Shown here one piece after another: positions 3,964 through 38,939 of a stretch of 40,059 bases of DNA (position 1 is its first letter; each line of letters opens with the position of its first letter). Source of the DNA: a virus. The translations under genes were made by a program, and so were the position numbers. The notes below the pieces were generated by a model. It made no database searches. It saw nothing but the letters and a program-made list of their open reading frames with translations, and had not been told where the DNA came from. The stretch covers positions 1 through 40,059 of IMG/VR virus record IMGVR_UViG_3300043331_002823, one strand, 5' to 3'.

Positions 3964-4680
3964 ATGAGCGGCATCTTCAACGGCACTAGTTCGGTCATCT
4001 CTGTGGGCCAGAGCGTCGTCGGCACGGCCGATCTGGACTATGGGGTGCTGGTGTGCGCGTGGTTCAAACAATCTGCCGCGCCGTCCGGCACTCAGTCGAT
4101 GTTTTCGGCCCACAACGCCCTGACCGGTGGTAATATCCGCACCATCCAACTCGCCACGCTCAGTACGCAGAAACTTTTTATCCGCCATCGCGGCAGCACG
4201 GCCAACGGAGACCTTACATCGACGAACATCTGGCCTACTTCAACGTGGGTCGCGGCAATGGGCGAGTTCATCGCAACGAACTCCCGCACTCTGCGATTCA
4301 ATGACGAGGCGACGGACGCCAACTCGACGAGCACGGGCACCGGCGTCAACGCCGTCGAGACCCGGATCGGCTCCATTAACTCAGCATCCCAATTCTTCAG
4401 CGGCCGCATCGCCGAAGTCGGCGTTTGGGCGCTGACGAACCAGACGCATCGGGACGCGATCATTGCCGATTTTAAGGCTAGTAAGCGGCCGAACCTCTGT
4501 GCCCACAGCGAAAAGTTAGTTCTCTACCAGCCGCTCAAAAGCGGCGTCAATGAGGACGGTTGCGTTGGCCCCGCGATGACGGAAACCAATGTAACTTGGG
4601 ACGCGGAGGACCACCCGATCGACTATGGCGGCTTCCAACCGTGGTACGTTCAACCTGAGTCAGGGAGGTTTGTCGGATGA
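3964..4680 (+). CDS. Phage structural protein with LamG/concanavalin-A-like fold
   Basis: The product is 238 aa. The sequence pattern (alternating strands, IFNGTSSVISVGQS near the start, and FSGRIAEVGVWALTNQTHRD at ~141-160) is typical of LamG/concanavalin-like jelly-roll domains, where a strand ending in G-x-I-x-E-V-x-x-W is the most conserved part. Such proteins decorate phage heads or tails or bind glycans. No clear Shine-Dalgarno precedes the ATG. The stop overlaps the next start (ATGA), so the two are translationally coupled. Its position upstream of the terminase is unusual because the other structural genes lie downstream. The exact virion location is unknown. Confidence 0.65.
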   Translation: MSGIFNGTSSVISVGQSVVGTADLDYGVLVCAWFKQSAAPSGTQSMFSAHNALTGGNIRTIQLATLSTQKLFIRHRGSTANGDLTSTNIWPTSTWVAAMGEFIATNSRTLRFNDEATDANSTSTGTGVNAVETRIGSINSASQFFSGRIAEVGVWALTNQTHRDAIIADFKASKRPNLCAHSEKLVLYQPLKSGVNEDGCVGPAMTETNVTWDAEDHPIDYGGFQPWYVQPESGRFVG

Positions 4681-6357: not shown

Positions 6358-7710
6358 ATGAAGATTCGCGACCGAATTAAGGACTTTCGCCGGGTGAAAG
6401 CCGCTGATTTGCGTCCAAACCCCCGCAACTGGCGGACTCATCCGCAGGCACAGCAGGATGCCCTGCGGGGCCTGCTCGCCGAGGTCGGGTACGCGGACGC
6501 CCTGCTGGCCCGCGAGCTACCGGATGGCAGCCTCGAACTGGTGGATGGGCACCTGCGGGCCGAGACCACCCCCGAACTGGAGGTGCCGGTCCTAGTGCTC
6601 GATGTGAACGAGCAGGAGGCGGAAAAGGTACTGGCGACGCTCGATCCGTTGGCCGCGATGGCGCGGGCGGATAAAGAGCGGCTGGATGCCCTGCTACAGC
6701 GGATCGACACCGGCAGCGAAGCGTTGCAGGAGATGCTCAACGAATTGGCCAAAGACAACGGCATCTACAAGATGCCGGAGGTGACCGAGGACGAGGTGCC
6801 GGCACCACCCGATGAAGCCACCACGCAAGCGGGCGACCTGTGGATATTGGGTGACCACCGGCTGCTCTGCGGGGATTCATCGCGGCCGGCGGACGTCGAT
6901 CGGCTGCTGGACGGCGCCACGATCCAGTTGGTGAACACCGACCCGCCGTATAACGTCAAGGTCGAACCCCGTTCGAACAACGCCATCGCCGCCGGCCTAT
7001 CGTCCTTTGAAGGCACACGGCATCACCAGGGCCTCGACCTCGCGCGGCACCCGGAGAAGGCCAAGCCCACGCAGAAGAAGCTGCGAGCAAAGGATCGCCC
7101 GCTGGCCAACGACTTCGTCTCGGAGGAAACATTCGACGAATTGCTCGGCGCCTGGTTCGGTAACATCGCCCGCGTGCTGGAGCCGGGTCGCGCGTTCTAC
7201 ATCTGGGGCGGCTATGCCAACTGCGCGAACTACCCGCCCGTGTTGAAGGCGTGCGACTTGTACTTTTCACAGGCGATCATCTGGGTGAAGGAGCACCCGG
7301 TGCTGACCCGCAAAGACTTCATGGGCAACCACGAGTGGTGCTTTTATGGTTGGCGCGACGGCGCCGCGCACGTTTTCCTCGGGCCCAACAACGCCGTGGA
7401 TGTGTGGAGCGTCAAGAAGATCAACCCCAACAAGATGGTCCACCTTACCGAGAAGCCGGTCGAACTGGCCGTGCGGGCCATGCAGTACTCGTCGCGCCAT
7501 GGGGAGAACGTGCTCGACCTGTTCGGCGGCAGCGGCTCAACGCTGATCGCCGCCGAACAAGCCGTCCGGCGTGCATTTTTGATGGAGCTCGACGCGCTCT
7601 ACTGCGACGTGATCGTCGAACGCTGGGAGAAGTTCACCGGGCGGAAGGCTGAACGCATCGCCGCCAACGAGAAAACCCCGGCGCTTGCCGGGGTGGGGGA
7701 TAAGGCATGA
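6358..7710 (+). CDS. ParB-domain / DNA methyltransferase fusion (N6_N4 Mtase)
   Basis: The product is 450 aa. Residues ~12-95 form a ParB/sulfiredoxin-like domain (DLRPNPRNWRTHP, then LVDGHLRAE). Residues ~165-435 are an S-adenosylmethionine-dependent DNA amino-methyltransferase. The catalytic motif DPPY is at 195-198 and the AdoMet-binding motif DLFGGSGST at ~387-395; with DPPY before FGGSG this is the beta-class order, so it methylates adenine N6 or cytosine N4. ParB-Mtase fusions are common in phages as solitary methyltransferases that protect viral DNA from host restriction. The target sequence cannot be predicted. No Shine-Dalgarno is visible upstream. The gene ends 11 bases before the stop of the convergent leftward cassette. 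Confidence 0.85.
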   Translation: MKIRDRIKDFRRVKAADLRPNPRNWRTHPQAQQDALRGLLAEVGYADALLARELPDGSLELVDGHLRAETTPELEVPVLVLDVNEQEAEKVLATLDPLAAMARADKERLDALLQRIDTGSEALQEMLNELAKDNGIYKMPEVTEDEVPAPPDEATTQAGDLWILGDHRLLCGDSSRPADVDRLLDGATIQLVNTDPPYNVKVEPRSNNAIAAGLSSFEGTRHHQGLDLARHPEKAKPTQKKLRAKDRPLANDFVSEETFDELLGAWFGNIARVLEPGRAFYIWGGYANCANYPPVLKACDLYFSQAIIWVKEHPVLTRKDFMGNHEWCFYGWRDGAAHVFLGPNNAVDVWSVKKINPNKMVHLTEKPVELAVRAMQYSSRHGENVLDLFGGSGSTLIAAEQAVRRAFLMELDALYCDVIVERWEKFTGRKAERIAANEKTPALAGVGDKA

Positions 7711-7721
7711 AGCAATGCGCG

Positions 7722-8093
7722 TCAGCCATTATGTGCCGCCGCTTCGCGGGCCATCGCCTCGTCGTGGGATCGTTGCAGTTCGATCTCCTCATGCGTGGCC
7801 GGACGGACGGTCACGATATTGATTGGCACGTCTTTGCCAAGTCGCTCCCGCAGGTCGACGTACAAATCGTGCAACGCAACTTGCCCAATGCGGCGGGCCT
7901 CGTCCTCGTTCGCCGCATCGACCAGCACATAGCGGGAAAGCGTGGCAACAAGATAGGTGGTCATTCCACGCGCGTTGCGAACGGCGTCATTCAGTGCCTC
8001 CCATTCAACGCGGGTGAGCATCTGATCCTCCCGCGCGCCAAGCACAGCCTCTGCCGCAACCAAAACATGTTCGAGTGCTTCGAGTCGTGTCAC
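7722..8093 (-). CDS. Small hypothetical protein, 123 aa, leftward cassette gene 5
   Basis: The start is a GTG with AGGAGA 6 bases upstream. The protein is largely helical and acidic (e.g. ARRIGQVALHDLYVDLRERL), without cysteines or membrane segments. I recognise no family. It follows the 74-aa gene after 15 bases and is probably co-transcribed with it. It converges on the methyltransferase gene. This strand, not the longer opposite-strand frame, is judged coding because of the strong ribosome-binding site and normal composition. Confidence 0.7.
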   Translation of the reverse strand: MTRLEALEHVLVAAEAVLGAREDQMLTRVEWEALNDAVRNARGMTTYLVATLSRYVLVDAANEDEARRIGQVALHDLYVDLRERLGKDVPINIVTVRPATHEEIELQRSHDEAMAREAAAHNG

Positions 8094-8108
8094 GTTCGAT
8101 CTCCTGTT

Positions 8109-8333
8109 TCAGTTTATGGGGACCGTGACGATTCGGTACGAGCCGTCCGGCATCTCGTGGTTGAAGATGTGGGCAAAACTAACTCCGGCCTCTTCCAAAT
8201 TGTCGAGGTCTGCTTTCGGAACGACCATCGGCTTGCCGCCGATCAAGACCGCTTCGCCTTGCCCGCTGGCGTCGGCCCATTGCAGGGCGTCGGTCATCGA
8301 TTCGCATTCAATCGCTTGATACGTGACATCCAT
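8109..8333 (-). CDS. Small hypothetical protein, 74 aa, leftward cassette gene 4
   Basis: ATG with AGGAGA at a spacing of 7. The compact, mixed alpha/beta sequence (GQGEAVLIGGKPMVVPKADL, then a YRIVTVPI strand at the end) resembles small phage accessory proteins, but I cannot name a family. It is the first gene of a two-gene unit with 7722-8093. The bipartite motif at 8382-8416 begins 49 bases upstream of its start, matching the position of the same motif before the gene at 9291. Confidence 0.7.
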   Translation of the reverse strand: MDVTYQAIECESMTDALQWADASGQGEAVLIGGKPMVVPKADLDNLEEAGVSFAHIFNHEMPDGSYRIVTVPIN

Positions 8334-8381
8334 CGAATGTTCTCCTGGTTAGTTGGCCGGGCGAACCTAACGCCCGTTATG

Positions 8382-8416
8382 ACACAGGAGCCATGCGGGC
8401 GGCAAAACATCAAGCG
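8382..8416 (-). promoter_or_regulatory. Bipartite conserved upstream motif, copy 1
   Basis: On the minus strand this reads CGCTTGATG-N13-ATGGCTCCTGTGT. Copy 2 at 9536-9570 has the same two blocks and the same 13-base gap, and sits at the same distance (48-49 bases) from a start codon. It could be a promoter or activator site. The second block also encodes a micro-ORF (Met-Ala-Pro-Val-Ser-stop), so a leader-peptide role is an alternative. A short CGGGCG/CGCCCG hairpin follows at 8357-8375. Confidence 0.5.
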
Positions 8417-8528
8417 GGTCGGCCCGGAATCCGTCGGAATAGCCCGGAATTCGCCCGCTCCCCGCGACGCCGCGACGTTTGGCCCGTGTCGCCGCCTGGG
8501 CGTTGGGCCAATGGTTCGCCGAACCAAC

Positions 8529-8563
8529 GAGAAAACGCCCCGACGTTCGCGACGTGGGGCGTT
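8529..8563 (-). terminator. Rho-independent terminator of the HARE-HTH gene
   Basis: The AACGCCCC arm (8534-8541) pairs with GGGGCGTT (8556-8563). Read leftward, the stem ends in GGGGCGTT followed by TTCTC. It lies 23 bases downstream of the stop of the gene at 8586-8960. The rest of the 252-base gap up to 8333 holds the bipartite motif copy 1 and no further gene that I can support. Confidence 0.7.
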
Positions 8564-8585
8564 GGGCGGGAACCTGTGGCGGGCG

Positions 8586-8960
8586 CTACCTGTTGGCGGC
8601 GAACTTGCCGCGTTCGGTCTTCTTGAACCGGGCCTCCTTCCCCTTCTCGTTGATCTCCCGCAGGATCGCGCTGTAAAGCGTGCGGTCGGGCGTCTTACCG
8701 CCAGGCGTCTTCCAGAGACCTTTGGCGGCCATCGTGTCGATCATCTCCTTGGTGGTCATTGGATTCTTCGAATCCGCGAGCACCTTAGCGGCGGCGTCGA
8801 GCGCGCTGAGTTTCTTGGCTTTCGCCTTGCCGTTACCAGCAGCGGCGTTCGCCTTCGCCGGAGCGGCCTTCGTCGCTCGAGCCTTCTTCGTCCTCGCCCC
8901 CTTCGCACTGCGGTTGCCCTTGCGCGTCGCTGCCTTCTTCGTGGTTCTGCTCTTCGACAT
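8586..8960 (-). CDS. HARE-HTH domain protein with histone H1-like basic tail
   Basis: The product is 124 aa. ATG 8960 has AGGAGA 6 bases upstream; a start 15 bases earlier is less likely. Residues 1-50 are a low-complexity tail of Lys, Arg and Ala resembling the C-terminal arm of histone H1. Residues ~52-124 match the HARE-HTH (HB1/ASXL) winged-helix pattern: LSALDAAAKVLADSKNPMTT, KEMIDTMAAKGLW, then T-P-x-x-T-L-Y-S-A-I-L-R-E-I and a basic FKKTERGKF strand. HARE-HTH domains bind DNA and are linked in bacteria to restriction or modification-associated proteins. Here it probably binds or compacts DNA. It is monocistronic with its own terminator. Similar proteins are frequent in planctomycete chromosomes. 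Confidence 0.85.
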   Translation of the reverse strand: MSKSRTTKKAATRKGNRSAKGARTKKARATKAAPAKANAAAGNGKAKAKKLSALDAAAKVLADSKNPMTTKEMIDTMAAKGLWKTPGGKTPDRTLYSAILREINEKGKEARFKKTERGKFAANR

Positions 8961-9008
8961 GGTACATCTCCTCATTCAAGCGTGCGATGGTTTGGCTGCC
9001 ATCATCAG

Positions 9009-9046
9009 GCGGCGGGAACCACCCGCCGCGACGCGCCCGCGGCGCG
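9009..9046 (-). terminator. Double GC-rich hairpin after the 73-aa gene
   Basis: GCGGCGGG/CCCGCCGC (9009-9016/9022-9029) and CGCGCC/GGCGCG (9032-9037/9041-9046) form two stems just after the leftward gene ending at 9054. No U-run follows, so this may be a Rho-assisted terminator or processing site. It separates the 9488-9054 unit from the HARE-HTH gene. Confidence 0.45.
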
Positions 9047-9053
9047 TTTCGGC

Positions 9054-9275
9054 TTATTTGTCAGTTCCACCCAGGAAGGCGACCACCGACGACAGGCGGT
9101 TGTTTACCTCGTTGATGTCTCCCACGTGGCCCCAATGGATCGGGTACTCCTCGTTGCCTGGGGCCGGCATGTCGAACAACAGTTCGCGGATGCGTTCGAG
9201 GAGGTCTTGCGCTACCAAATGCGCGTTCTCGTAAGCCGCCTCTGCGGTGAGTTTTGGTTTCTTGTTGCGTGGCAT
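9054..9275 (-). CDS. Small hypothetical protein, 73 aa, leftward cassette gene 2
   Basis: ATG with AGGAGA at a spacing of 7. The N-terminus is basic (MPRNKKPKL), followed by an amphipathic helical stretch (residues ~10-40) and a terminal helix (INEVNNRLSSVVAFLG), suggesting a small DNA-associated or helical adaptor protein. The family is not recognised. It begins 15 bases after the stop of the 65-aa gene, so they form one unit. Confidence 0.7.
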   Translation of the reverse strand: MPRNKKPKLTAEAAYENAHLVAQDLLERIRELLFDMPAPGNEEYPIHWGHVGDINEVNNRLSSVVAFLGGTDK

Positions 9276-9290
9276 GTTTGGGTCTCCTTG

Positions 9291-9488
9291 TTAGTTGCAG
9301 TCGCGGAGGTACGCCCGCAGTTCCTTCAGAGCCTGGCAGGCGTCGAGCGAATACTCGCGGCCCCATTCGGCCAGCGTTTCGACGGCGTCCCACGGCTCGT
9401 CGGCATCAACTTCGAAGGCGTCGTACCCGTTGCCGTCGGCGTCCGCGACGGTCATCAGCTCGTTCACGAATTCGATGTAGTGTTTCAT
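9291..9488 (-). CDS. Small acidic hypothetical protein, 65 aa, leftward cassette gene 1
   Basis: ATG with AGGAGA at a spacing of 7. The product is strongly acidic (ADADGNGYDAFEVDADEPWD). The D-A-D-G-N-G-Y-D-A-F-E segment at ~16-26 superficially resembles a calcium-binding loop, but one short loop is not enough to call an EF-hand. It is the first gene of the leftward unit. The bipartite motif at 9536-9570 lies 48 bases upstream. Confidence 0.7.
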   Translation of the reverse strand: MKHYIEFVNELMTVADADGNGYDAFEVDADEPWDAVETLAEWGREYSLDACQALKELRAYLRDCN

Positions 9489-9535
9489 GCGTTCGTCTCC
9501 TTGGCGGTTGTGATGGAATGCCCCCAGCGACAGTC

Positions 9536-9570
9536 ACACAGGAGCCATCAAGTCGCGCCCGCATCAAGCG
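9536..9570 (-). promoter_or_regulatory. Bipartite conserved upstream motif, copy 2
   Basis: On the minus strand this is CGCTTGATG, 13 unrelated bases, then ATGGCTCCTGTGT, as in copy 1 at 8382-8416. Here the micro-ORF would be Met-Ala-Pro-Val-stop. No good TATAAT-like hexamer is seen at a standard distance, so the recognising factor may be phage-encoded or an alternative sigma factor. Confidence 0.5.
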
Positions 9571-9682
9571 CGGTGTTGGCCAGCAGGAAAAGAATTCCCA
9601 GGATTTTTCAGCGGCCATTTAGGGAAGCCGAAATGGCCGGATTCGGGACACATCCCGGAGTTTGCGCAGGTGGGGCGGGCTG

Positions 9683-11845
9683 ATGGTCGATCTTCTCGAG
9701 GCCCGTCGCAGGCACCGCGAGCAAGGACGGCTTCTTCGCGAAGCCGAGCGGACGGCCGGCATCACGCCTGGAGAAAAGCACCGCCAACTAATGGCCGAAC
9801 GATCGCGTGAGGCAAGCCGCCAGAACGCGGAGGTCGGTCCGCCGCCGCCGCGCGACGAGCAGCTTTATCAACGTTATCGAAACGACCTGTACGTGTTTCT
9901 CTCCGAATGTTTCCCTGAATCCCTCGGCTTGAGCCCGTTGTCGCCGGACCACCACCGGATCATTGAGCGTCTACAGGAAGCAATCCTTCACGGCGGCCAG
10001 GAGCTAATCATCATGCCGCGCGGCTTCGCCAAATCGACCATTGTGGAAAGCACCGCGATCTGGGCGGGCGGCTACGGCCATCGTAGCTTCTTCGTGCCGC
10101 TTGCGGCCACGGACGAGATGGCAAAAGCCGCTCTCGATTCGCTTCAATACGAGTTCGAGACCAACGAAGCCCTGATGCTGATCTTTCCGGAGGCCTGCCA
10201 CGCCGCCCGGGCGCTGGAGGGCGTGCCGCAGCGGGCCGGTAAACAGACGATTGACGGTCGCCTCACCCGCATCGAATGGAGCTGCCAGCGGTGCGTACTG
10301 CCCACGGTAAATGGCTTCCCCGGCAGCGGCGCGATCATCTGGCCGCGATCCATCGTTGCGAAGGGGCTTCGCGGAACTCGCTTCAAGCGGCCGGACGGAA
10401 AGCAGGCGCGGCCGGACTTTATCATGGCTGACGATCTGCAAACGGATGAAAGTGCCGAGAGCGCGGCGCAAACACGAAAGCGGTTCAACATACTCAATCG
10501 CACCGTGCTGAGGATGGGCGGGCACACTAGCCGGCTGGCGATTGCTCTTGTTGGAACGATCATCGAGCCGGACGACTTGGTGGACCAGCTCTCTGACCAC
10601 GACAAGCACCCTGCCTGGCGCTCGATCAAGGTTCCTATGCTGAAGGCCCTGCCGGCGGCGCTTGACGAATGGCTGGGGCCGTATGCGGAAACCCGCATGG
10701 GGTACAACCCCGACGACGACCAGGACAAGTCTCGTGCCGAGCGTGAGGCCAACGATTACTACGTCGCCCATCGCGCCCGGTTGGACGCGGGTGCCGTGGC
10801 GACGTGGGAAAGCTGCTACGACACAGAGCACGAGCTCTCAGCGATCCAGCATGCCATGAATATCTGGATCGACTCCGGGGAAGACGCGTTCATGGCCGAG
10901 TGCCAGAACACGCCGATCCGCGAGGCGACTTCCCTTGAGCTGCTCTCGGCCGAGCAAATCTGCCGCAAGCAATCGGCATTTCCTCGAGGTTGCTTCCCCG
11001 CCGAATGCACGACGCTTACCGCATTCGTGGACGTGCATCCGTCGATCTACTACTGCGAAATCTGGGCATGGGAGCCGAACTTCACTGGCTACATGATCGA
11101 TAGCTTCACACTACCGGACCAAAAGCGGAAGTATTTCTCGCACCGGAAGCACCCACGTCGGCTGAAACAGCTTTATGCGCGGATGGACAGTGAAGCGACT
11201 GCAACAGCAGCGCTGAACGCTTTGCTGCACGGCGACGAGGACAAAGGTATTTCCGGGTTGATGCAGCGCGAGTGGACGCGCCACGACGGAGTGCTCCTTC
11301 GTATCCGTTGCTGTTTGGTGGACGCCAATGGAGAACTACGCGATGTCGTCGTGCGCGTGCTGAGCCGCTCGCCGTTCGCGGCCAGTTTGCATCCGTCCTT
11401 CGGCAAAGGCATCGGCGCCAAAGACAAGCCAATGTCGTCTTGGCCCAATACGAAGAAGCAGCGCAACGTCGGTCCGGAGTGGCTGGTAACCAAGGGCCGC
11501 CCTGGCGAGGTGCCGGGCATCCAGTTCGACACGAACTATTGGAAAATGAGATTCCACCGGGCGATGGCGCTGCCCGACGGGAGCCAAGGCGCACTCTATC
11601 TCCACAAGACGCCGCCAAATGACCACCGTCTCGCGGCGGACCATTACCTTTCGGAGAATCCGACTGAAGTCACCGTCGGCAGCCGCACGGTGCATGAGTT
11701 CAAGATCAAGCCGAACGCCGACAACCATCGGCTGGACTGCGCGGTTGGCAATATGGTCGCCGCCTCTCGGTGCGGAATCACCAACGTCAAATTCAATCCA
11801 TTGCGCAAATCGCGCAGTCGTAGGAGGACCATTTATTATGGCTAA
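9683..11845 (+). CDS. Phage terminase large subunit (TerL)
   Basis: The product is 720 aa. ATG 9683 follows an AGGTGGGG-type ribosome-binding site. The ATPase domain has a variant Walker A, MPRGFAKST (~111-119), and a Walker B strand DFIMADD (245-251). The nuclease domain has the RNase H-like acidic residues in AFVDVHPS (D450) and DCAVGN (D685). The length and PRG-x-x-KS loop resemble GpA/GpA-like terminases, long forms that pack DNA into proheads with a nuclease that cuts concatemers. No small terminase is obvious; the zinc-ribbon protein immediately downstream or a leftward cassette gene might substitute. The gene overlaps the next start by 8 bases. Confidence 0.9.
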   Translation: MVDLLEARRRHREQGRLLREAERTAGITPGEKHRQLMAERSREASRQNAEVGPPPPRDEQLYQRYRNDLYVFLSECFPESLGLSPLSPDHHRIIERLQEAILHGGQELIIMPRGFAKSTIVESTAIWAGGYGHRSFFVPLAATDEMAKAALDSLQYEFETNEALMLIFPEACHAARALEGVPQRAGKQTIDGRLTRIEWSCQRCVLPTVNGFPGSGAIIWPRSIVAKGLRGTRFKRPDGKQARPDFIMADDLQTDESAESAAQTRKRFNILNRTVLRMGGHTSRLAIALVGTIIEPDDLVDQLSDHDKHPAWRSIKVPMLKALPAALDEWLGPYAETRMGYNPDDDQDKSRAEREANDYYVAHRARLDAGAVATWESCYDTEHELSAIQHAMNIWIDSGEDAFMAECQNTPIREATSLELLSAEQICRKQSAFPRGCFPAECTTLTAFVDVHPSIYYCEIWAWEPNFTGYMIDSFTLPDQKRKYFSHRKHPRRLKQLYARMDSEATATAALNALLHGDEDKGISGLMQREWTRHDGVLLRIRCCLVDANGELRDVVVRVLSRSPFAASLHPSFGKGIGAKDKPMSSWPNTKKQRNVGPEWLVTKGRPGEVPGIQFDTNYWKMRFHRAMALPDGSQGALYLHKTPPNDHRLAADHYLSENPTEVTVGSRTVHEFKIKPNADNHRLDCAVGNMVAASRCGITNVKFNPLRKSRSRRRTIYYG

Positions 11846-12113
11846 CCGCAAGTCGCCGGGCCGGCCGCCCGGCTCACGGAATAGAGAATACGCAAACGCC
11901 GTTGAAATCCCAGCATATTGCATAAAGTGCGGATCAACCAAACTTCGTCGCGTGAAAGGTTCCAAGATTATCGAGCGAAACCTCGCCGGCACCCTGGCCA
12001 ATGGCTTTAAGTTCCGCGCCGTCCGCTGGTCGCGTGAGCGTTGCGAGTGCGGACAAATGCTGAACGTCCGAACGTACCTCCCGGCACTTGCGGACGACAG
12101 TATTGCTGATTGA
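11838..12113 (+). CDS. Small zinc-ribbon protein, 91 aa
   Basis: ATG 11838 has a perfect AGGAGG 10 bases upstream and lies inside the end of the terminase gene. Residues 3-16 (NRKSPGRPPGSRNR) form an AT-hook-like basic arm with a GRPPGSR core. C28-x2-C31 and C69-x-C71 make a plausible zinc ribbon. It probably binds DNA and might act as a packaging accessory or small-terminase analogue; this is inferred from position only. A 236-base gap follows before the HTH gene. Confidence 0.75.
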   Translation: MANRKSPGRPPGSRNREYANAVEIPAYCIKCGSTKLRRVKGSKIIERNLAGTLANGFKFRAVRWSRERCECGQMLNVRTYLPALADDSIAD

Positions 12114-12281: not shown

Positions 12282-12310
12282 TTGCAATTCTATCGCAGGG
12301 CGATAGAATT
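12282..12310 (+). promoter_or_regulatory. Promoter with overlapping palindromic operator for the HTH-kinase module
   Basis: TTGCAA (12282-12287), a 16-base spacer and TAGAAT (12304-12309) make a good sigma70-type promoter. An exact inverted repeat, AATTCTATCGC (12286-12296) / GCGATAGAATT (12300-12310) with a 3-base centre, covers the end of the -35, the spacer and the whole -10. A repressor bound here would block RNA polymerase. The HTH protein encoded 40 bases downstream is the obvious candidate (autoregulation). Confidence 0.7.
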
Positions 12311-12311
12311 A

Positions 12312-12327
12312 GCTGCTGACAGGCAGC
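12312..12327. promoter_or_regulatory. Second inverted repeat at the presumed transcription start
   Basis: GCTGC-TGACAG-GCAGC directly follows the -10 element, around the expected +1. It could be a second, weaker operator or a 5' stem in the mRNA. Its sequence is unrelated to the upstream palindrome. Confidence 0.35.
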
Positions 12328-12349
12328 ATATCATCGCAAGGGCAGAGGA

Positions 12350-12619
12350 ATGACCCTCTCTGGCAAAGGTCGAAAGCCATCAAAAGTGGTCGGGGATAGC
12401 TTCCGCCACAAGGTTGCTGATCGTATTCGTTCGCGACGGCTCGAATTACAAATGCGCGCTGAAGATGCGGCAGATCAAGTAGCCGTGTTGATCGGAAAGC
12501 CCGTCAGCGTTCAAACATGGTATCACTGGGAGAAAGCCGAGCATCCCTTCGATATCGACATTCTGCCGGCAATAGCAAAGGTGCTGCAATGGCAACCGAA
12601 ACAGCTCCTCGAAAGTTAA
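12350..12619 (+). CDS. Cro/CI-like helix-turn-helix repressor, 89 aa
   Basis: Residues ~18-85 form a lambda-repressor-like HTH: RHKVADRIRSRRLELQMRAED, AADQVAVLIGKPVSVQTWYHW, then DIDILPAIAKVLQWQPKQLL, the usual fifth helix of XRE-type domains. The protein has no extra dimerisation or protease domain. It likely binds the palindrome at 12286-12310 and controls itself and the kinase. Its last 31 bases overlap the kinase gene in another frame, so the two are tightly coupled. Placed between head genes, it looks like an independent regulatory module rather than the main prophage repressor, although the latter is not excluded. Confidence 0.85.
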   Translation: MTLSGKGRKPSKVVGDSFRHKVADRIRSRRLELQMRAEDAADQVAVLIGKPVSVQTWYHWEKAEHPFDIDILPAIAKVLQWQPKQLLES

Positions 12620-14016
12620 AGCCAAAACCGACAGCCGTCGCAACTACCACTGAGGATCGCTACGTGATCGCTCCAGTCGAAGTCGGCGCAGGCGGATTCG
12701 GCAAAGTGCATTTGGGCGAAGACCGAATACTTCAACGAAAAATTGCGGTCAAGACGATCAATCCCGATTGGGGGAAGGCTACGGACGAAGACAAGGAAAG
12801 ATTCCGGCGTGAGGCCCGAACGCTTGCACAGCTCAACCACCCGCATATCCCCGCTATCTACGACGTAGTTTTGCGGGAGGGAAAATTCGAGATCATCTTT
12901 CAGTTTGCTGAGGGAACCACGCTTCGGGCAATTATTGAGAGCGGCGGCACAACGTTTCAGGACTGCCGAATATGGTTTAGCCAGATTGCTTCTGCTTTGG
13001 AACATGCGCACGAAAAAAAGATTATTCATCGTGATGTCAAACCTGAAAACATGATTGTGTCGCCAGACAAGAAACACTGCTATCTGGTCGATTTTGGCAT
13101 TGCACTTTCCAAGGAAGAAATGACACGCTTGACAGGATCAGATAATTGGATCGGCACGCCGGGCTATATGTCTCCCGAACAAGAGGATGGCAAAGAGGTC
13201 GATAGTAGCGACGATCTTTTTGTACTAGCGGGGTGCCTGTACGAAGCACTTTGTGGCCATCGGATCCAACAAGGCGACTATCAGCCGCTTAACGCGATCA
13301 ATGAGTTAATTCCTCCCGCAATTGACAGTTTGATTCTAAGATGCATCGCTCCTAAGCCTCAACGCCTAAAGTCGGCAGCCGAATTTCGCGACCTGCTAAG
13401 AAGCGCAGCGCATGGGCACAGAACGTTGTCCGACATTCTAGTAAACGGTCAGCTATACGAAATTGCCGCAGCAATTCGGGACATGTCTCCTGCTGAGTTC
13501 ATGGAAATGAAAATGGGGCAACGGCTGCTTGTCTTGCAAAAATGTCATAGCATTATTGCGAGCGAGAATCCCAATCTCGAAGCCGCGCGAATTGAGTTCC
13601 TGACCACGATGACGGGCCTTGGAATATACTTGGAGCAAGATCAGTATCTTCGGGTAATTAAGCCCGCGATTAGATTCGGTTTCGGATACCTTGCGGGCGA
13701 TGGCTCGCCCGCCGCAAAGGGTAATTTCCGAGTTCGGGAGGCAATTGCGGACGCAGCGCGTCAAGTTACAACAGACAACCACCATGCCATAGTTGAAGCT
13801 TTGCTTGAATGGCTTGAGGGCATCGATATCAAAATCCAGAGAAACTGGTTCTACCACTCCGTCCGTCAATTGCTTAATTCGCTGTTAGCGAATCCATCTT
13901 GCTCCGACAGCGACGCATCGCGATTAGCCGAGAAGCTGGCAATCGTGGATGATTTGCACTTTGGTCACAGCCACGATGCAGACCAAAAGTACGCCGAAGA
14001 ACTGGTTGGTCGCTAG
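12589..14016 (+). CDS. Hanks-type Ser/Thr protein kinase with novel C-terminal domain
   Basis: The product is 475 aa. ATG 12589 lies within the HTH gene. All key kinase motifs are intact: glycine loop VGAGGFGKV (32-40), VAVK-type lysine K55, helix-C glutamate E75, catalytic HRDVKPEN (147-154, D149), DFG (168-170) and activation-segment GTPGYMSPE (189-197). The kinase domain spans ~25-290 and should be active. Residues ~290-475 are helical and unfamiliar, with no membrane segment, PASTA or WD repeats, so the protein is cytosolic, unlike most PASTA-type bacterial kinases. The gene is visibly more A/T-rich than the flanking head genes. It is co-expressed with the HTH repressor and ends in a strong terminator. 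Possible roles are superinfection exclusion, abortive infection or lysogeny control. Confidence 0.9.
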   Translation: MATETAPRKLKPKPTAVATTTEDRYVIAPVEVGAGGFGKVHLGEDRILQRKIAVKTINPDWGKATDEDKERFRREARTLAQLNHPHIPAIYDVVLREGKFEIIFQFAEGTTLRAIIESGGTTFQDCRIWFSQIASALEHAHEKKIIHRDVKPENMIVSPDKKHCYLVDFGIALSKEEMTRLTGSDNWIGTPGYMSPEQEDGKEVDSSDDLFVLAGCLYEALCGHRIQQGDYQPLNAINELIPPAIDSLILRCIAPKPQRLKSAAEFRDLLRSAAHGHRTLSDILVNGQLYEIAAAIRDMSPAEFMEMKMGQRLLVLQKCHSIIASENPNLEAARIEFLTTMTGLGIYLEQDQYLRVIKPAIRFGFGYLAGDGSPAAKGNFRVREAIADAARQVTTDNHHAIVEALLEWLEGIDIKIQRNWFYHSVRQLLNSLLANPSCSDSDASRLAEKLAIVDDLHFGHSHDADQKYAEELVGR

Positions 14017-14034
14017 ATTGGCGGCATGCTACAG

Positions 14035-14064
14035 GCCGGGGTGGTCAGAAGCGACCACCCCGGC
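14035..14064 (+). terminator. Strong hairpin terminator after the kinase gene
   Basis: A perfect 12-bp stem, GCCGGGGTGGTC (14035-14046) / GACCACCCCGGC (14053-14064), with loop AGAAGC, starts 18 bases after the kinase stop. The following sequence is AAACTTATCTTGCTTT, only moderately U-rich. The remaining stretch to 14240 is A/T-rich with no gene or clear promoter that I can support, although late head transcription must read through or restart here. Confidence 0.75.
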
Positions 14065-14240
14065 AAACTTATCTTGCTTTGGTGAGCGCCTCGCATCTTG
14101 GTGGCGCAGCAGACTTATCCGTTAATGCTTCTTCCCGGCCAAAATTAAAATGCCGCATGCATTAACCGCAACCAAAATTCTGTGGAATCGACAACGACTT
14201 CTGTAACAATTGAACTAGCGGCTTGATCCACCGCATTCAG

Positions 14241-14276
14241 AAGCCCGTGCCGGGGCGGCACCCCCTGCGCGGGCTT
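14241..14276 (+). terminator. Hairpin just before the gpW-like gene
   Basis: AAGCCCG (14241-14247) pairs with CGGGCTT (14270-14276), with an inner TGCCG/CGGCA stem; TTGTTC follows. It is terminator-like but lies only 5 bases before the presumed GTG start, so it may instead shape the leader of the head operon. Confidence 0.45.
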
Positions 14277-14281
14277 TGTTC

Positions 14282-14491
14282 GTGTCGGAACAGCAAGACT
14301 ACCGTCGCGAAATCCAGCAGCTCGAAGCGCTGATCAACAGCGCGTCGACGTCCGTCAGCACCGACGGCCTCTCGACTAGCTTCGACCTCGACAAGGCGCG
14401 CAAGCGTTTGGCCGAGCTGCGGCGTTTGCAGGGCGACCTGCGTCTCGTGCGGCCCAAAGTAGCATCACTCAATCTCGGAGGGGCGTGGTGA
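14282..14491 (+). CDS. gpW-like head-tail joining protein, 69 aa
   Basis: The start is a GTG at 14282 (MSEQQDYRREIQQLEAL); TTG 14276 is possible, and neither has a good ribosome-binding site. The size, the helix - beta hairpin (TSVSTDGLSTSFDLD) - helix (KARKRLAELRRLQGDL) layout and the place directly before the portal gene match lambda gpW, which plugs the portal before tail attachment. The stop and the portal ATG overlap by one base. Confidence 0.75.
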   Translation: MSEQQDYRREIQQLEALINSASTSVSTDGLSTSFDLDKARKRLAELRRLQGDLRLVRPKVASLNLGGAW

Positions 14492-28896: not shown

Positions 28897-28939
28897 ATAA
28901 ACCGTCGCTATTGTGCGACATGGCACAAAGGAAGTTGCC

Positions 28940-31051
28940 TTGGATAACATCGAACAACTTGAATCCGACCTCTGGGCAGCAGCCGACAATCTCCGTGCCA
29001 ATTCCAAGCTGACTTCGTCGGAATACTGCATGCCGGTGCTGGGCGTGATCTTCTTGCGCCATGCTACCAACCGGTACGACGCAGCAGCGGCGCAGATCGC
29101 AGCAGATCAGTCGGCCGGCAAAATGCCCAAGCGGCCGCTCGTGAAAGGTGATTTTCTCAAACGTCGCGCGCTCATGTTGCCGAGGGAATCCCGCTACGAC
29201 GAGCTGCTCAAGCTGCCAAAGGGCGCCAAACTCGGCTCTGGCCTGGTCAAGGCGATGGAGGCTGTCGAATACGACTTCGAGCCGCTTAAAGGTCAGCTTC
29301 CCAAAGACTATGACAAGTTCGAGAACGACCTGCTTGAAGACTTGCTTCGTGTGTTCGACAGCGAAACGCTCCGCATGGCCAGCGGCGACGTGTTCGGGCG
29401 TATCTACGAATACTTCCTCATGAAGTTCGCGATGCAGGGCGCGCAGGACAACGGCGAATTTTTCACGCCGCCCTCGCTGGTGCAAACCATCGTCAATGTG
29501 ATTGAACCGGATCACGGCACGGTCTTCGATCCGGCGTGTGGCTCGGGCGGCATGTTCGTGCAATCAAGCCACTTTATCGAACGCCTGGGCAAGGACACGG
29601 CCCACCGCGTCACGTTCTTCGGCCAGGAGAAAACGGCGACGACGATCCGGCTGGCGAAGATGAATCTGGCAGTGCATGGGCTCGAAGGTGACATTCGCGA
29701 GGCCAACACCTTCTACGAGGACGCCCACAATCTCTTTGGTAAGTGCGACTTCGTGATGGCTAATCCACCGTTCAACGTCGATATGGTGGACGCCGAGAAG
29801 GTGAAGGACGACCGCCGCTTGCCGTTTGGCCTGCCTGGCGTCAATAAGGCGAAGAAGGTTTCCAACGGCAACTACCTGTGGATCTCTTACTTCTACAGCT
29901 ACCTGGGCGCTAAAGGCCGGGCCGGATTCGTGATGTCGTCGCAGGCGTCGAGTGCCGGTCATGGCGAGGCCGAGGTCCGCCGCAAGATCATCGAGACGGG
30001 TGACGTCGATGTGATGATCTCGATCCGCGCGAACTTCTTTTACACCCGGACCGTGCCGTGCGAGCTGTGGCATTTCGATCGCGGCAAGCCTAATGAACGG
30101 CGTGACCTAGTGCTGATGCTCGACGCCCGAAATATCTACCGCAAAGTCACCCGCAAGATTTACGACTTCGCGCCCGAGCAGTTGGCCAATCTGACGGCCA
30201 TCGTGTGGCTCTATCGCGGCGAGTCAGAGCGATTCTTGAAGCTCGTACAAAACTACCTCGATCGCACGCGCAGCGAAGCGGCGCTCATCGCCGCGCCTGC
30301 GACCGACCTGCGCACGGCGTACCAAGCGCTCGTCGATGCCACTGCGCCCGTACTCAAGTCCATCCTCTCCTCTCCTATTGGGAGCGGGGCCGGGGGTGAG
30401 GGCACCAACGGCCAACCCGTGGCGCTGCGCGAGCTCATGAAGGAGCGCAACACTGTAGCCAAAGCGTGCTTCGCGTCGCTCGATGAATGGACCGGCCGGG
30501 TCGCCAAGGACCGGAATAAACCGTGTGAGCCGAAGATCGCCGCGCTACAGAAGCGGCTCGCCGCGCTCGATTCGCTCGCGCAGGCATGTAAAGACTTGGT
30601 GAAGGACGTTGACCTTATGTGCAAGCTCGCCGGTCGTGTGATGGATGTGGCCGAGAAGGATTGCGCGGCCCGGGAACACGACGATTGGGACAGCCGCGCC
30701 ATTGGTCGGCTCGCGAAAGACCTCGACACGCGGCGCAAAGCGCTGGTCGAACAGCTTAAGCAGACGGCCTACTTCGAGCGGCAGGCGCATTGGCTGTTGT
30801 CGCGATTTCCCAATGCCAAGTTCGTTGCGGTCGCCGGCCTATGCCGCGCCGTCACACTCAAGGAGATCGAAGCGGCCGACTGGAGCCTCACCCCCGGCCG
30901 CTATGTCGGCGTTGCGCCGGCCGATGTCGATGAGGACTTCGACTTCGAGCAGGCGCTCAAGGACATCCATACCGAACTGGCCGATCTGAATGAGGAAGCC
31001 GTCGTGCTTGCGGCGAAGATTCAAGAGAACTTTGAGGGGCTGGGGGTATGA
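28940..31051 (+). CDS. hsdM: Type I restriction-modification methyltransferase subunit HsdM
   Basis: 703 aa from TTG 28940, with AAGGAAG just upstream; a GTG at 28913 is less likely because homologues begin near DNIEQLESDLW. An N-terminal HsdM_N helical domain (1-~155) precedes the N6-adenine methyltransferase core: AdoMet motif FDPACGSGG (196-204) and catalytic NPPF (275-278). It methylates host DNA within the M2S1 complex and joins HsdR for cleavage. At ~703 aa it is ~150-200 longer than typical HsdM: residues ~430-640 are Ala/Lys/Glu-rich helices, probably coiled coil. An in-frame palindromic repeat lies in this extension (30364-30403). Overlaps hsdS by 4 bases. Confidence 0.93.
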   Translation: MDNIEQLESDLWAAADNLRANSKLTSSEYCMPVLGVIFLRHATNRYDAAAAQIAADQSAGKMPKRPLVKGDFLKRRALMLPRESRYDELLKLPKGAKLGSGLVKAMEAVEYDFEPLKGQLPKDYDKFENDLLEDLLRVFDSETLRMASGDVFGRIYEYFLMKFAMQGAQDNGEFFTPPSLVQTIVNVIEPDHGTVFDPACGSGGMFVQSSHFIERLGKDTAHRVTFFGQEKTATTIRLAKMNLAVHGLEGDIREANTFYEDAHNLFGKCDFVMANPPFNVDMVDAEKVKDDRRLPFGLPGVNKAKKVSNGNYLWISYFYSYLGAKGRAGFVMSSQASSAGHGEAEVRRKIIETGDVDVMISIRANFFYTRTVPCELWHFDRGKPNERRDLVLMLDARNIYRKVTRKIYDFAPEQLANLTAIVWLYRGESERFLKLVQNYLDRTRSEAALIAAPATDLRTAYQALVDATAPVLKSILSSPIGSGAGGEGTNGQPVALRELMKERNTVAKACFASLDEWTGRVAKDRNKPCEPKIAALQKRLAALDSLAQACKDLVKDVDLMCKLAGRVMDVAEKDCAAREHDDWDSRAIGRLAKDLDTRRKALVEQLKQTAYFERQAHWLLSRFPNAKFVAVAGLCRAVTLKEIEAADWSLTPGRYVGVAPADVDEDFDFEQALKDIHTELADLNEEAVVLAAKIQENFEGLGV
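30364..30403. repeat. GC-rich palindromic repeat inserted in-frame in hsdM
   Basis: CCTCTCCTCTCCTATTGGGA followed by GCGGGGCCGGGGGTGAGGGC has the form of dispersed intergenic repeats known as CCCTCTCC...GGGAGAGGGCCGGGGTGAGGG in many high-GC bacteria. In the protein it encodes a Ser-Ser-Pro-Ile-Gly-Ser-Gly-Ala-Gly-Gly stretch, out of character with the flanking charged helices. Confidence 0.5.
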
Positions 31052-32184
31052 AATCTGTAGCTGAAGTTCCGCTTGTCGATATTGCCGAGGGGATATTTGA
31101 TGGGCCGCATGCGACGCCGCCTGAATCAGAGGACGGACCAATTTTTCTGCGGCTCGACAACATCACCCCTGAAGGGCGCCTTGACCTGACCGACTTGCGA
31201 TACATAAATCAGGCCGACTTTCCGAAGTGGACTCGCCGAGTCAAACCTGAACCGGGCGATGTAGTCTTCTCCTACGAGGCCACACTTCACCGTTATGTAG
31301 AGATTCCTGAGGGTTTCCACGGATGCTTGGGACGACGACTCGCCCTGATACGTCCCAATCGAAGTAAGATCGAGCCGCGATATTTGCTGTACTACTTTCT
31401 GTCGCCTCGATGGCGTAGCGTAGCAGGGACCGCCGTTATCAATGGTGCGACCGTGGATCGAATCTCCCTGACGCTTGTCCGAAACCTGCCGGTCAGGCTT
31501 CCAGCCCTAGAGCAACAACGCCAAATTATCGATGTTCTCTCCGCCTACGACGACTTGATTGAGAACAACCGACGACGGATGGCATTGCTGGAGGAATCGG
31601 CGCGGCTATTGTACCAGGAGTGGTTCGTCCGCCTCCGCTTCCCCGGCCACGAACGTACCCGCCTCGTTGAGGGCGTGCCCGACGCCTGGGAGCGTGTGCT
31701 ACTTGGGGACAGAGTAGTCCTGAACTATGGAAAAGGGCTAAAGGCAGATGAGCGGATCGACGGTCCCTTTCCGGTTTTCGGTTCAAGTGGGATCGTTGGT
31801 TTCCACGAAAGGCCTCTTGTGGCTGGTCCGGGCATCATTGTGGGCCGAAAAGGCAACGTTGGCAGCGTCCATTGGTCCAGCAAGGATTATTATCCAATCG
31901 ACACGGTGTACTACATCGACGCCGATAGCAGCGATCTCTATCTCTATTACGCGCTTCGAAACATGCATTTCATCAGCACCGATGTGGCAGTGCCTGGCTT
32001 AAACCGCGACTTCGCCTATAGCCGACCGTTGCTGTTCCCGACGGACACAATGCGACGGCAATTCCTCGATGCTGTTGTGCCATTGCGACAGCAAATCGAA
32101 AACTTGGAGGCAATGAACGACAAGCTTCGCGCCGCCCGCGACCTACTATTGCCACGCCTGATGAGCGGGGAAATAGCCATTTAG
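31048..32184 (+). CDS. hsdS: Type I restriction-modification specificity subunit HsdS
   Basis: The product is 378 aa with two target-recognition domains: TRD1 ~1-150 (SVAEVPLVDIAEGIFDG...) and TRD2 ~205-345. They are separated by the conserved spacer PALEQQRQIIDVLSAYDDLI with ENNRRRMALLEESARLL, and the C-terminal repeat PLRQQIENLEAMNDKLRAAR ends in LLLPRLMSGEI. The two helical spacers set the bipartite target spacing. The recognition sequence cannot be predicted. Starts within the hsdM stop. Confidence 0.9.
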   Translation: MKSVAEVPLVDIAEGIFDGPHATPPESEDGPIFLRLDNITPEGRLDLTDLRYINQADFPKWTRRVKPEPGDVVFSYEATLHRYVEIPEGFHGCLGRRLALIRPNRSKIEPRYLLYYFLSPRWRSVAGTAVINGATVDRISLTLVRNLPVRLPALEQQRQIIDVLSAYDDLIENNRRRMALLEESARLLYQEWFVRLRFPGHERTRLVEGVPDAWERVLLGDRVVLNYGKGLKADERIDGPFPVFGSSGIVGFHERPLVAGPGIIVGRKGNVGSVHWSSKDYYPIDTVYYIDADSSDLYLYYALRNMHFISTDVAVPGLNRDFAYSRPLLFPTDTMRRQFLDAVVPLRQQIENLEAMNDKLRAARDLLLPRLMSGEIAI

Positions 32185-32199
32185 TATGGAAAAGCCACA

Positions 32200-33948
32200 A
32201 TGATAAAGCAACATAAGAGCGATCTGTTCGATTTTATGGTTTCACGGGTGCAGGACACGCAGAAGAACCACCTAGACGGCGAGCCGCAGGCGTTCGGACG
32301 CTGGTTCGCTAACCTGTTCTTTATGAGCCCGCGTGATCTGTTTGTCTCGGACGGTTGCCGGGACGGACAGATCGATCTTTTCTGTACGACAGACAATGGC
32401 AAGTCAGTGCTTCACCACGTTCTTAACACAAAGTATACGAAGCACTTCAACAAGATCGCCCCGCCCGCTTTCTACCATGAGATCAAGTCTTTCTGGCAGG
32501 TATTCGACAACCGCGAGGCGCGCCGTCCATATCTAGAAAAATCTGTGGCTGCCGAATTGCGGCCTCGATACAAGCAACTCTTCGAGCGGTATGACAACGA
32601 TGCAGCGGAGTTGATGTTTGTCACCAATCACCGTTGCAACGACGGGCAGTATGAGCAAGTGCGAAACATCCCGGTCAAGATCTTTCACCTGGACGACCTG
32701 ATCCAATGCCTCATCGATGATATCGATGGCGCGATGCCCCGCACGCCCGATATCAGCCTTCATAGCGTACACGCGGTCTTGTCGCCAGATAAGGCCGACA
32801 CCGAAGTTGCCACATCGATCATCTTTGCCCGGCTGGTGGACTTCCTCCATTACATGGACAGCGACCCGTTCGACCTGCTGTTCAACCGCAATGTTCGCGT
32901 TGCCATCAGCTTATCTCAGTCGCCGGTGAACCAGGAGATTCGTGAAACATTCAAGACGAGTCCCAAGGAATTCGCGTTCAGCAATAACGGCATTACGATG
33001 CTGTGCGAGAAACAGCACTACGACCCAGGCCAAAAGGTTCTGACTTTGGAGAACCCGCGCGTTGTGAATGGCTCGCAAACACTCCACAGCATTCGCGACG
33101 TGCCGAATCCCTCGCCGAACGCACGTGTCATGGTGCGAGTGATCGAAATCGAGCCGCCGCGCGGCGATGCGCTCGATGAGAAATACCAGTGGCGAAAGGA
33201 CATTATCAACAAGATCGCCCGACGCAGCAACCGGCAGAACCCGATCAAGGCTTGGGACTTGGCAGCGAACGATGATTTCCAACTTGAACTATTCAGGTTC
33301 TTCCGAAGCAAAGGATACTTCTATGAGCGGCGAAAAGGCGAATGGAAACAGCGCCGCAAGCAACTCAAGAATGTGAACATCCAGTATGGGAGCAACATCA
33401 AACGGCTGATGCAGCTGATCGCCAGCTATTACTGGTCGAAGCCCAAGCTGGGCCCTGTTTCTGCAAAGAAGGTTGCCGAATTGTTCGATGGCGACATCTA
33501 CGACATCATCAGCGCGACGACACCGGAACTTGCCTTTCAGATCACCCTCATTAATTGGAACTTGCGGGAGTGTGAGCGCGACCTCGCCAATGAGAAGGTG
33601 TACATCGCAAAGCTGAAGGCATACGGGCAATTTGCAGTCTTTGCACTCGCCATCAGAGCGTTGCAGGTAGCGGGCGCGAAATTCGGCCATCCAAGTTTCA
33701 CTGAACTACTGCAAGACCAGTGGCAGGACTGGTCGAATCGATATCGCTCGTGGAAACTCCTCACCAAGGCATGTATCGATCAAATAGTGAGGGTCTTCAA
33801 AAAGGAGGCGGCGCGTGCGACTCGCGACGGCGATGACGTTTTGACCTACGTGAACTACGTCAAGAATCAAAGTTACATGTCCGATCTGTTAGCCGCGCCA
33901 CTCAGTGGCGACATAAAGCGCCACGCCCGTGCCGTGTTGAAAGCTTAA
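32200..33948 (+). CDS. AIPR-family abortive-infection protein inside the type I operon
   Basis: The product is 582 aa. The AIPR-type core (PF10592) is seen at ~250-350: EFAFSNNGITMLCEK (F260) and the signature ENPRVVNGSQTLHSI (V288-T294), with MVRVIEI following. The N-terminal ~200 residues resemble a restriction-like nuclease fold: GQIDLF (D59) and VLHHVLNTKYTKHF, where the usual E/Q-x-K is N-x-K (N76, K78). It may thus be a degenerate or altered nuclease. AIPR proteins are linked to phage resistance. Its place between hsdS and hsdR, 15 and 9 bases from its neighbours, makes it part of the restriction operon. Confidence 0.85.
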   Translation: MIKQHKSDLFDFMVSRVQDTQKNHLDGEPQAFGRWFANLFFMSPRDLFVSDGCRDGQIDLFCTTDNGKSVLHHVLNTKYTKHFNKIAPPAFYHEIKSFWQVFDNREARRPYLEKSVAAELRPRYKQLFERYDNDAAELMFVTNHRCNDGQYEQVRNIPVKIFHLDDLIQCLIDDIDGAMPRTPDISLHSVHAVLSPDKADTEVATSIIFARLVDFLHYMDSDPFDLLFNRNVRVAISLSQSPVNQEIRETFKTSPKEFAFSNNGITMLCEKQHYDPGQKVLTLENPRVVNGSQTLHSIRDVPNPSPNARVMVRVIEIEPPRGDALDEKYQWRKDIINKIARRSNRQNPIKAWDLAANDDFQLELFRFFRSKGYFYERRKGEWKQRRKQLKNVNIQYGSNIKRLMQLIASYYWSKPKLGPVSAKKVAELFDGDIYDIISATTPELAFQITLINWNLRECERDLANEKVYIAKLKAYGQFAVFALAIRALQVAGAKFGHPSFTELLQDQWQDWSNRYRSWKLLTKACIDQIVRVFKKEAARATRDGDDVLTYVNYVKNQSYMSDLLAAPLSGDIKRHARAVLKA

Positions 33949-33957
33949 TCGCATCTC

Positions 33958-38309: not shown

Positions 38310-38939
38310 TCACTTTGTTTGCGACGTTTTGCCGGCGGATTTCTCGTCGCCCTTCTTTTCTTCGTCGGGCGGCACGATCAGCGGACCTCCATAGGCGTCG
38401 CAAATCGCCAGCACATTCAGCAGGCCGGCGATCACCGTGAACACCGTGCCGATTTCAAAGTATTCACCCAGGTCATAGTTCCACTTAGCCAACTCGTCGG
38501 GGTGATGAACGCGGCGGCGGCGATCCGACTGATCGACGGATTGAAAACCGTCCGGCATGTCGGGCGGTGGGTTCTTATGGGGCGGGCGCATGAACCAATC
38601 GGACACGAGCGGTTTCTTGTGTTCCAGCATTCGCGCCCGCTGCACCAGCGCGGGTAGCGCGGGCAGGCCTACGCCCACCTGGCAAATGTACTGCCACCGC
38701 TCCAGGAACTGCCGCGAGAACAGCTCGCCTGTCGACGCATAGACCACGCGCCCGCCACCGATGTAGAAGCCATACACGAAAGTGCCCACGATGCACGCGA
38801 AGAACAGAATCCCCTTGCCCGTTCGGCCCTGGTAAAAATGCCCGAGTCCTGGCATCAGCCACGCCAGAAACGCCGCCAACCGCGGGTCTTTCAAGTCGAT
38901 TTCCAGGTCGGTTTCATCGCTGGGCGAGTCTTTTGCCAT
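38310..38939 (-). CDS. Planctomycete membrane protein (DUF6677-like), 209 aa
   Basis: ATG 38939 has AGGAG upstream. Residues ~20-62 contain the pattern DPRLAAFLAWLMPGLGHFYQ, then GRTGKGILFFACIVGTFVYG: the P-G-x-G-H-x-Y-x-G-R-x-x-K-G motif that precedes a membrane helix in TM2/DUF6677-type proteins. A second hydrophobic region is at ~160-185 (FTVIAGLLNVLAICDAYGG). The tail is Lys/Glu-rich. Function unknown; it is a typical conserved planctomycete housekeeping-like neighbour. Confidence 0.75.
   Translation of the reverse strand: MAKDSPSDETDLEIDLKDPRLAAFLAWLMPGLGHFYQGRTGKGILFFACIVGTFVYGFYIGGGRVVYASTGELFSRQFLERWQYICQVGVGLPALPALVQRARMLEHKKPLVSDWFMRPPHKNPPPDMPDGFQSVDQSDRRRRVHHPDELAKWNYDLGEYFEIGTVFTVIAGLLNVLAICDAYGGPLIVPPDEEKKGDEKSAGKTSQTK

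What the first reader, a model, noticed from the sequence alone, without database searches (positions are those of the whole stretch)
12282..14064. Self-contained HTH repressor + Ser/Thr kinase module inside the head-gene operon
A promoter fully covered by an 11-bp perfect inverted repeat drives an Xre-type repressor gene. That gene overlaps a complete soluble Hanks-type kinase with an unfamiliar ~185-residue helical C-terminus, and a 12-bp-stem terminator closes the unit. It lies between terminase and gpW, is visibly more A/T-rich than its neighbours and can be regulated independently of late genes. Phage-encoded kinases with their own repressor are candidates for superinfection exclusion or abortive infection (compare lambda rex under CI control, or anti-phage Ser/Thr kinases). 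The pairing with a palindromic switch is the best candidate here for an undescribed system.
Basis: partly seen in the sequence, partly recalled or inferred. Interest (0 to 1): 0.8.

Follow-up and report, generated by a model that had tools for sequence, protein, structure and literature searches.

The report
Prophage cargo: autoregulated repressor–kinase gene pair
A dormant virus sitting in a bacterial chromosome carries, wedged between two of its particle-building genes, a self-contained cassette of a small DNA-binding protein and a protein kinase with an unusual helical tail, most likely an accessory gene pair that the resident virus expresses on its own terms, possibly to block rival viruses.

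Summary
The window's only two perfect inverted repeats (arms ≥11, spacer ≤8) bracket the module: a promoter-overlapping operator and a 12-bp hairpin. Between them lie an 89-aa XRE-type HTH gene and, overlapping it by 31 bp, a Hanks-type kinase with all catalytic motifs. GC is 51% against 59% for the window. In 58 related phage contigs the terminase–portal gap is 511–1347 bp, against 2.68 kb here; none carries the kinase or HTH. It is therefore an autonomous 'moron' in a provirus (gyrA lies at the window's right end). The kinase C-terminus matches no family or solved structure by sequence; it models as an ARM/HEAT-like helical solenoid. One full-length relative (43%) was found, in one of several hundred Myxococcota genomes. 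It lies just upstream of a PADLOC candidate-defence helicase and has no HTH partner. Best reading: an autorepressed, lysogen-expressed kinase acting as exclusion/abortive-infection or host-modulating cargo, functionally like phage 933W Stk. That function is inferred. A HipBA-like toxin–antitoxin reading is not excluded. The HTH–kinase pair was seen nowhere else, and Planctomycetota, the probable host phylum, could not be searched.

The parts
12282..12309 (+). sigma-70-like promoter: TTGCAA - 16 nt - TAGAAT
   Evidence: 9 of 12 consensus matches; consensus match only
12286..12310 (.). perfect inverted repeat, 11-bp arms, 3-nt spacer, overlapping the promoter; presumed operator of the HTH protein
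   Evidence: only one other perfect repeat of this size in the window; binding inferred
12350..12619 (+). 89-aa XRE-type helix-turn-helix protein, presumed autorepressor
   Evidence: HTH_31 E 2.7e-4, below the Pfam cutoff; PHROG transcriptional repressor E 1.6e-5
12589..14016 (+). 475-aa Hanks-type Ser/Thr kinase, start overlapping the HTH gene by 31 bp
   Evidence: Pkinase E 3.2e-38; catalytic motifs complete; full-length relative at 43% identity
13390..14013 (+). kinase C-terminal 208 residues: all-helical, ARM/HEAT-like solenoid model; no family match
   Evidence: no match; model pLDDT 75, pTM 0.70; weak Foldseek matches to armadillo/TOG proteins
14035..14064 (+). 12-bp-stem, 6-nt-loop hairpin closing the unit; probable terminator without a classical T tract
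   Evidence: perfect inverted repeat; -28.7 kcal/mol, z -4.56
11619..12113 (+). left neighbour: conserved small Cys-rich (zinc-ribbon-like) late protein; left edge of the insertion slot
   Evidence: homologues after TerL in relatives
14276..14491 (+). right neighbour: conserved 71-aa gpW-position protein before portal; right edge of the insertion slot
   Evidence: homologues in relatives; no profile match to gpW

Best explanation
An autonomous moron in the late operon of a provirus. The HTH protein binds the palindrome over its own promoter and holds the bicistronic mRNA at a low, self-limited level in the lysogen, independently of late transcription; the hairpin ends the unit. The overlapping, probably translationally coupled kinase is soluble. 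Its ARM/HEAT-like tail is proposed to dock a partner (a host protein or a component of an incoming phage), and the kinase then phosphorylates target proteins to stop a competing infection or retune the host. Shown: cassette boundaries, gene content, intact kinase motifs, absence from relatives, absence of family matches for the tail. Inferred: repressor binding, expression in lysogeny, tail as docking module, anti-phage outcome.
For: Palindrome and hairpin bracket the genes and are the only such repeats in 40 kb. The TerL-portal gap is 511-1347 bp in 58 relatives vs 2682 bp here, and in the closest relative L007 the slot holds a different cargo, a T5orf172/MUG113 ORF. Low GC. Complete kinase motifs. 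Tail conserved in a relative at 35% and modelled as a helical solenoid. The relative lies 222 bp upstream, same strand, of a PDC-S28 candidate-defence helicase and is sporadic (1 of 184 in its order). Precedent: the 933W kinase cotranscribed with cI aborts HK97 infection (PMC3564112). Phage kinases also appear as cargo in phiES15, a Klebsiella P2-like phage and another IMG/VR provirus.
Against: No anti-phage activity is known for this subfamily. The HTH-kinase pairing was seen once only. PADLOC's PD-T4-6 match covers essentially only the generic kinase domain. In the eight other helicase loci that were read, no relative of this kinase appeared. The solenoid model has moderate confidence and no Foldseek match below E 0.001.
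Confidence: 0.5

Rival explanations
1. HipBA-like type II toxin-antitoxin module: the HTH protein is both autorepressor and direct inhibitor (antitoxin) of the kinase; loss of the HTH protein, for example after phage takeover, frees a growth-arresting Hanks-type kinase.
For: Gene order, small XRE size, overlapping genes and promoter-overlapping palindrome match the hipBA layout (PMC3874152: HipB neutralises HipA and represses hipBA).
Against: Kinase is Hanks-type, with no HipA match in Pfam. The only relative exists without an HTH neighbour, so the HTH is not an obligate antidote of this kinase family.
Confidence: 0.2
2. Regulatory kinase for the provirus's own life cycle or host physiology (lysogeny maintenance, induction control or metabolism), not defence.
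For: Location in the late operon with its own promoter allows lysogenic expression; phage kinases occur in other settings (a kinase-phosphatase pair in phiES15).
Against: Absent from all related phages examined, so not needed for the phage cycle.
Confidence: 0.2
3. A captured host-type signalling kinase with its regulator, without selected phage or defence function (recent hitchhiker).
For: Low GC and uniqueness among relatives; the probable host phylum (Planctomycetota, an assignment from memory on gyrA and DUF6677) is rich in Hanks kinases (own knowledge).
Against: Own operator, hairpin and intact motifs suggest maintained expression; the one relative is a sporadic accessory gene, not a conserved host kinase.
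Confidence: 0.1

Closest known systems
Phage 933W / phi24B Stk kinase, co-transcribed with the cI repressor
   Same: Prophage-encoded eukaryotic-like kinase linked to an HTH repressor gene; proposed exclusion/abortive infection role (PMC3564112)
   Different: Stk lies in the immunity region; here the unit is in the late operon with its own small HTH and palindrome. Only 23% identity, over the kinase domain
PD-T4-6 anti-phage kinase (PADLOC profiles)
   Same: Single-protein Hanks-type kinase; best PADLOC matches E 2.4e-61
   Different: Best matches limited to residues about 20-279, the generic kinase domain; tail not covered; PD-T4-6 has no dedicated HTH partner to my knowledge
HipBA toxin-antitoxin system
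   Same: Small HTH autorepressor gene before a protein-kinase gene; palindromic operator
   Different: Kinase is Hanks-type, not HipA; direct inhibition of the kinase by the HTH protein untested
C-protein-controlled restriction operons and Aca-type regulators
   Same: Small HTH protein binding inverted repeats at its own promoter to limit a linked effector (PMC3874152; PMC8434428); weak Aca2_YdiL match (E 0.006, below cutoff)
   Different: Effector is a kinase, not a nuclease or anti-CRISPR; in Aca operons the regulator gene usually follows the effector gene

Membership tests
Phage moron (autonomous cargo) | Inserted between genes that are adjacent in related phages | tested here: met
   TerL-portal gap 511-1347 bp in 58 relatives vs 2682 bp here; no kinase or HTH in them
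Phage moron (autonomous cargo) | Own promoter | tested here: inconclusive
   9/12 sigma-70-like match with overlapping palindrome; transcription not testable
Phage moron (autonomous cargo) | Own terminator | tested here: inconclusive
   Very stable 12-bp hairpin but no T tract; scan did not call it
Phage moron (autonomous cargo) | Base composition differs from the flanks | tested here: met
   0.513 vs 0.591 for the window
Hanks-type Ser/Thr kinase | Kinase domain with Gly loop, VAIK-type Lys, HRD, DFG | tested here: met
PD-T4-6 defence kinase | Full-length match including the region beyond the kinase domain | tested here: not met
   Best profiles cover residues about 20-279 (one weaker profile reaches 358); NCBIfam, PHROG and PDB searches with the tail alone find nothing
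PD-T4-6 defence kinase | Anti-phage activity | not testable with these tools
   Needs plating assays
933W Stk-type repressor-linked kinase | Kinase gene co-oriented downstream of the phage's main repressor in the immunity region | tested here: not met
   Unit lies in the late operon between TerL and portal; its HTH is a short local regulator
HipBA toxin-antitoxin | HipA-family kinase | tested here: not met
   Pfam gives Pkinase, no HipA family
HipBA toxin-antitoxin | HTH gene preceding and overlapping the kinase gene, palindrome at the promoter | tested here: met
   operator binding inferred
HipBA toxin-antitoxin | Toxicity of the kinase neutralised by the HTH protein | not testable with these tools
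   Needs expression assay

The most novel reading that the evidence does not exclude
A new class of phage-carried immune or toxin-antitoxin unit in which a Hanks-type kinase with an ARM/HEAT-like sensor tail is kept in check by a co-encoded HTH protein and unleashed by infection.
Probability: 0.2. Interest if true: 0.75.

Novelty: new variant of a known kind. Interest (0 to 1): 0.45.

Why it matters
Prophage-encoded kinases tied to repressors are a known but thinly sampled exclusion strategy (933W Stk). An autonomous, self-repressed kinase cassette with a sensor-like solenoid tail, in a provirus of a probably planctomycete host, would extend that strategy beyond the immunity region of lambdoid phages and give a compact, testable module for how kinases recognise infection. 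The tail, found in only two proteins here, defines a searchable subfamily.

Tried and rejected
PHROG 2361 (E 9e-60 over residues 25-432) at first looked like a family including the tail; the tail alone does not match it, so the match rests on the kinase domain. The palindrome occurs exactly in one other viral contig (L076), but that is an A/T-rich stretch full of hairpins with no related gene: taken as chance. The genome-contig search with the kinase returned only a generic myxobacterial kinase fragment. Terminase, HTH, tail-alignment and P0004 queries found no relatives in viral contigs. A fixed kinase + PDC-S28 helicase system: in eight other genomes the helicase has different neighbours, so rejected as a conserved pair. 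Plasmid and phage kinase hits share mainly the kinase domain; three plasmid hits aligned further (to residues 375-465 at about 24%), but the tail alone found nothing. Some gut 'Bacteriophage sp.' hits (H4, H8) look like ordinary bacterial kinases beside housekeeping genes. The full-length kinase model was poor (pLDDT 51).

Full report
WHAT IS THERE. The window is a 40,059-base IMG/VR virus record. Its right end runs into bacterial chromosome: a gyrA start at 39295 (Pfam DNA_topoisoIV, 2e-89) and a DUF6677 gene. So this is a provirus with host flank. The gyrA sequence and DUF6677 look planctomycete to me; that assignment rests on memory, not on a search.

THE UNIT. At 12286-12310 lies AATTCTATCGC-AGG-GCGATAGAATT, with perfect 11-bp arms, over a 9/12 sigma-70-like promoter. 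It covers the -10 and the spacer but only two bases of the -35. A scan of the whole window found exactly two perfect inverted repeats with arms of at least 11 and spacers up to 8: this one and the 12-bp hairpin at 14035-14064. Eight first-order Markov simulations of the window gave one in total. The two repeats enclose precisely the two genes. The hairpin folds at -28.7 kcal/mol (z -4.6), but no T tract follows, so 'terminator' is probable rather than certain.

GENES. The first gene encodes 89 residues with weak but concordant XRE matches. The second starts at ATG 12589, inside the first gene and in another frame, overlapping it by 31 bp, and encodes a 475-residue Hanks-type kinase (3e-38) with intact Gly loop, K55, HRDVKPEN, DFG and SPE and no hydrophobic segment. 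GC of the unit is 0.513 against 0.591 for the window, 0.61 for TerL and 0.62 for portal.

INSERTION SLOT. The portal protein found 69 related viral contigs. In all 58 where both TerL and portal are present, the distance between their homologies is 511-1347 bp; here it is 2682 bp. Most relatives carry only a small Cys-rich protein and the conserved gpW-position ORF in that interval. None encodes the kinase or the HTH. The closest relative, L007 (71% in portal), has a different extra gene in the same slot, a T5orf172/MUG113 ORF. The unit is thus cargo, and the slot has accepted other cargo.

THE KINASE TAIL. Residues 268-475 match nothing in plasmids, phages, NCBIfam or PDB sequences, and nothing significant in PHROGs. 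A single-sequence AlphaFold model is all-helical with pLDDT 75 and pTM 0.70. Foldseek's best PDB matches are designed armadillo repeats and TOG/HEAT domains, E 0.015 at best and TM about 0.56; BFVD gives nothing significant. An ARM/HEAT-like docking tail is the best description, at moderate confidence.

RELATIVES. One full-length relative (P0004, 438 aa, 43% identity, tail 35%) turned up in one Myxococcota genome. Draws of 189 and 379 genomes from the phylum (overlapping), and 184 of its order, gave no second relative along the whole tail. It stands 222 bp upstream of, and co-oriented with, a helicase matching PADLOC's candidate-defence family PDC-S28 at 995 bits. It has no recognisable HTH gene beside it. 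In eight other genomes the helicase has different neighbours, so the adjacency is one instance, not a conserved system.

HOW IT PROBABLY WORKS. The layout (small HTH gene, palindrome over its promoter, overlapping effector gene, closing hairpin) is that of a self-limited operon such as hipBA, C-protein-controlled restriction operons or Aca-regulated operons (PMC3874152; Aca papers listed). The likely outcome is steady low expression in the lysogen, independent of late transcription. Function is by analogy: in 933W a kinase co-transcribed with cI aborts HK97 infection (PMC3564112), and other phages carry kinases as cargo. I put anti-phage or host-modulating cargo at about 0.5, a true toxin-antitoxin arrangement at 0.2, a phage-cycle or physiology regulator at 0.2 and a hitchhiker at 0.1.

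LIMITS. The pair HTH+kinase was not seen elsewhere, but the genome tools gave access only to Myxococcota after the single genome-contig scan, so the probable host phylum was not sampled. Absence is therefore weak evidence. Operator binding, expression and phenotype are untested.

Noticed in passing
window 8990-9054 (-): Type II hammerhead ribozyme (Rfam RF02276, 53 bits, above gathering score), antisense within the ORF 7707-9683 just upstream of terminase.
   Followed up: no
window 28913-37371 (+): Type I restriction-modification cluster: HsdM, HsdS, an AIPR/AbiU-like protein, HsdR; may be provirus cargo or host flank.
   Followed up: partly
window 38310-40059: Host chromosome at the right end: gyrA start and a DUF6677 gene, showing the record is a provirus with flank; looks planctomycete (from memory).
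   Followed up: partly
window 6358-7710 (+): ParB-like/DNA methyltransferase fusion (PHROG 498, 4.5e-92), homologues upstream of terminase in several relatives.
   Followed up: no
window 3964-4680 (+): Laminin-G/concanavalin-like domain protein next to a primase-polymerase gene.
   Followed up: no
window 14240-14275; L007 about 1920-1990: A G+C-rich hairpin directly upstream of the gpW-position gene (z -2.8) appears, by eye, to be shared with relative L007.
   Followed up: no
L082:4150-8222: Myxococcota kinase relative followed by a PDC-S28 helicase; possible two-gene defence locus downstream of a glmU-like gene.
   Followed up: partly
L130:2426-4569: Two tandem kinase genes next to an integrase-like ORF in a Klebsiella P2-like phage record.
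   Followed up: no
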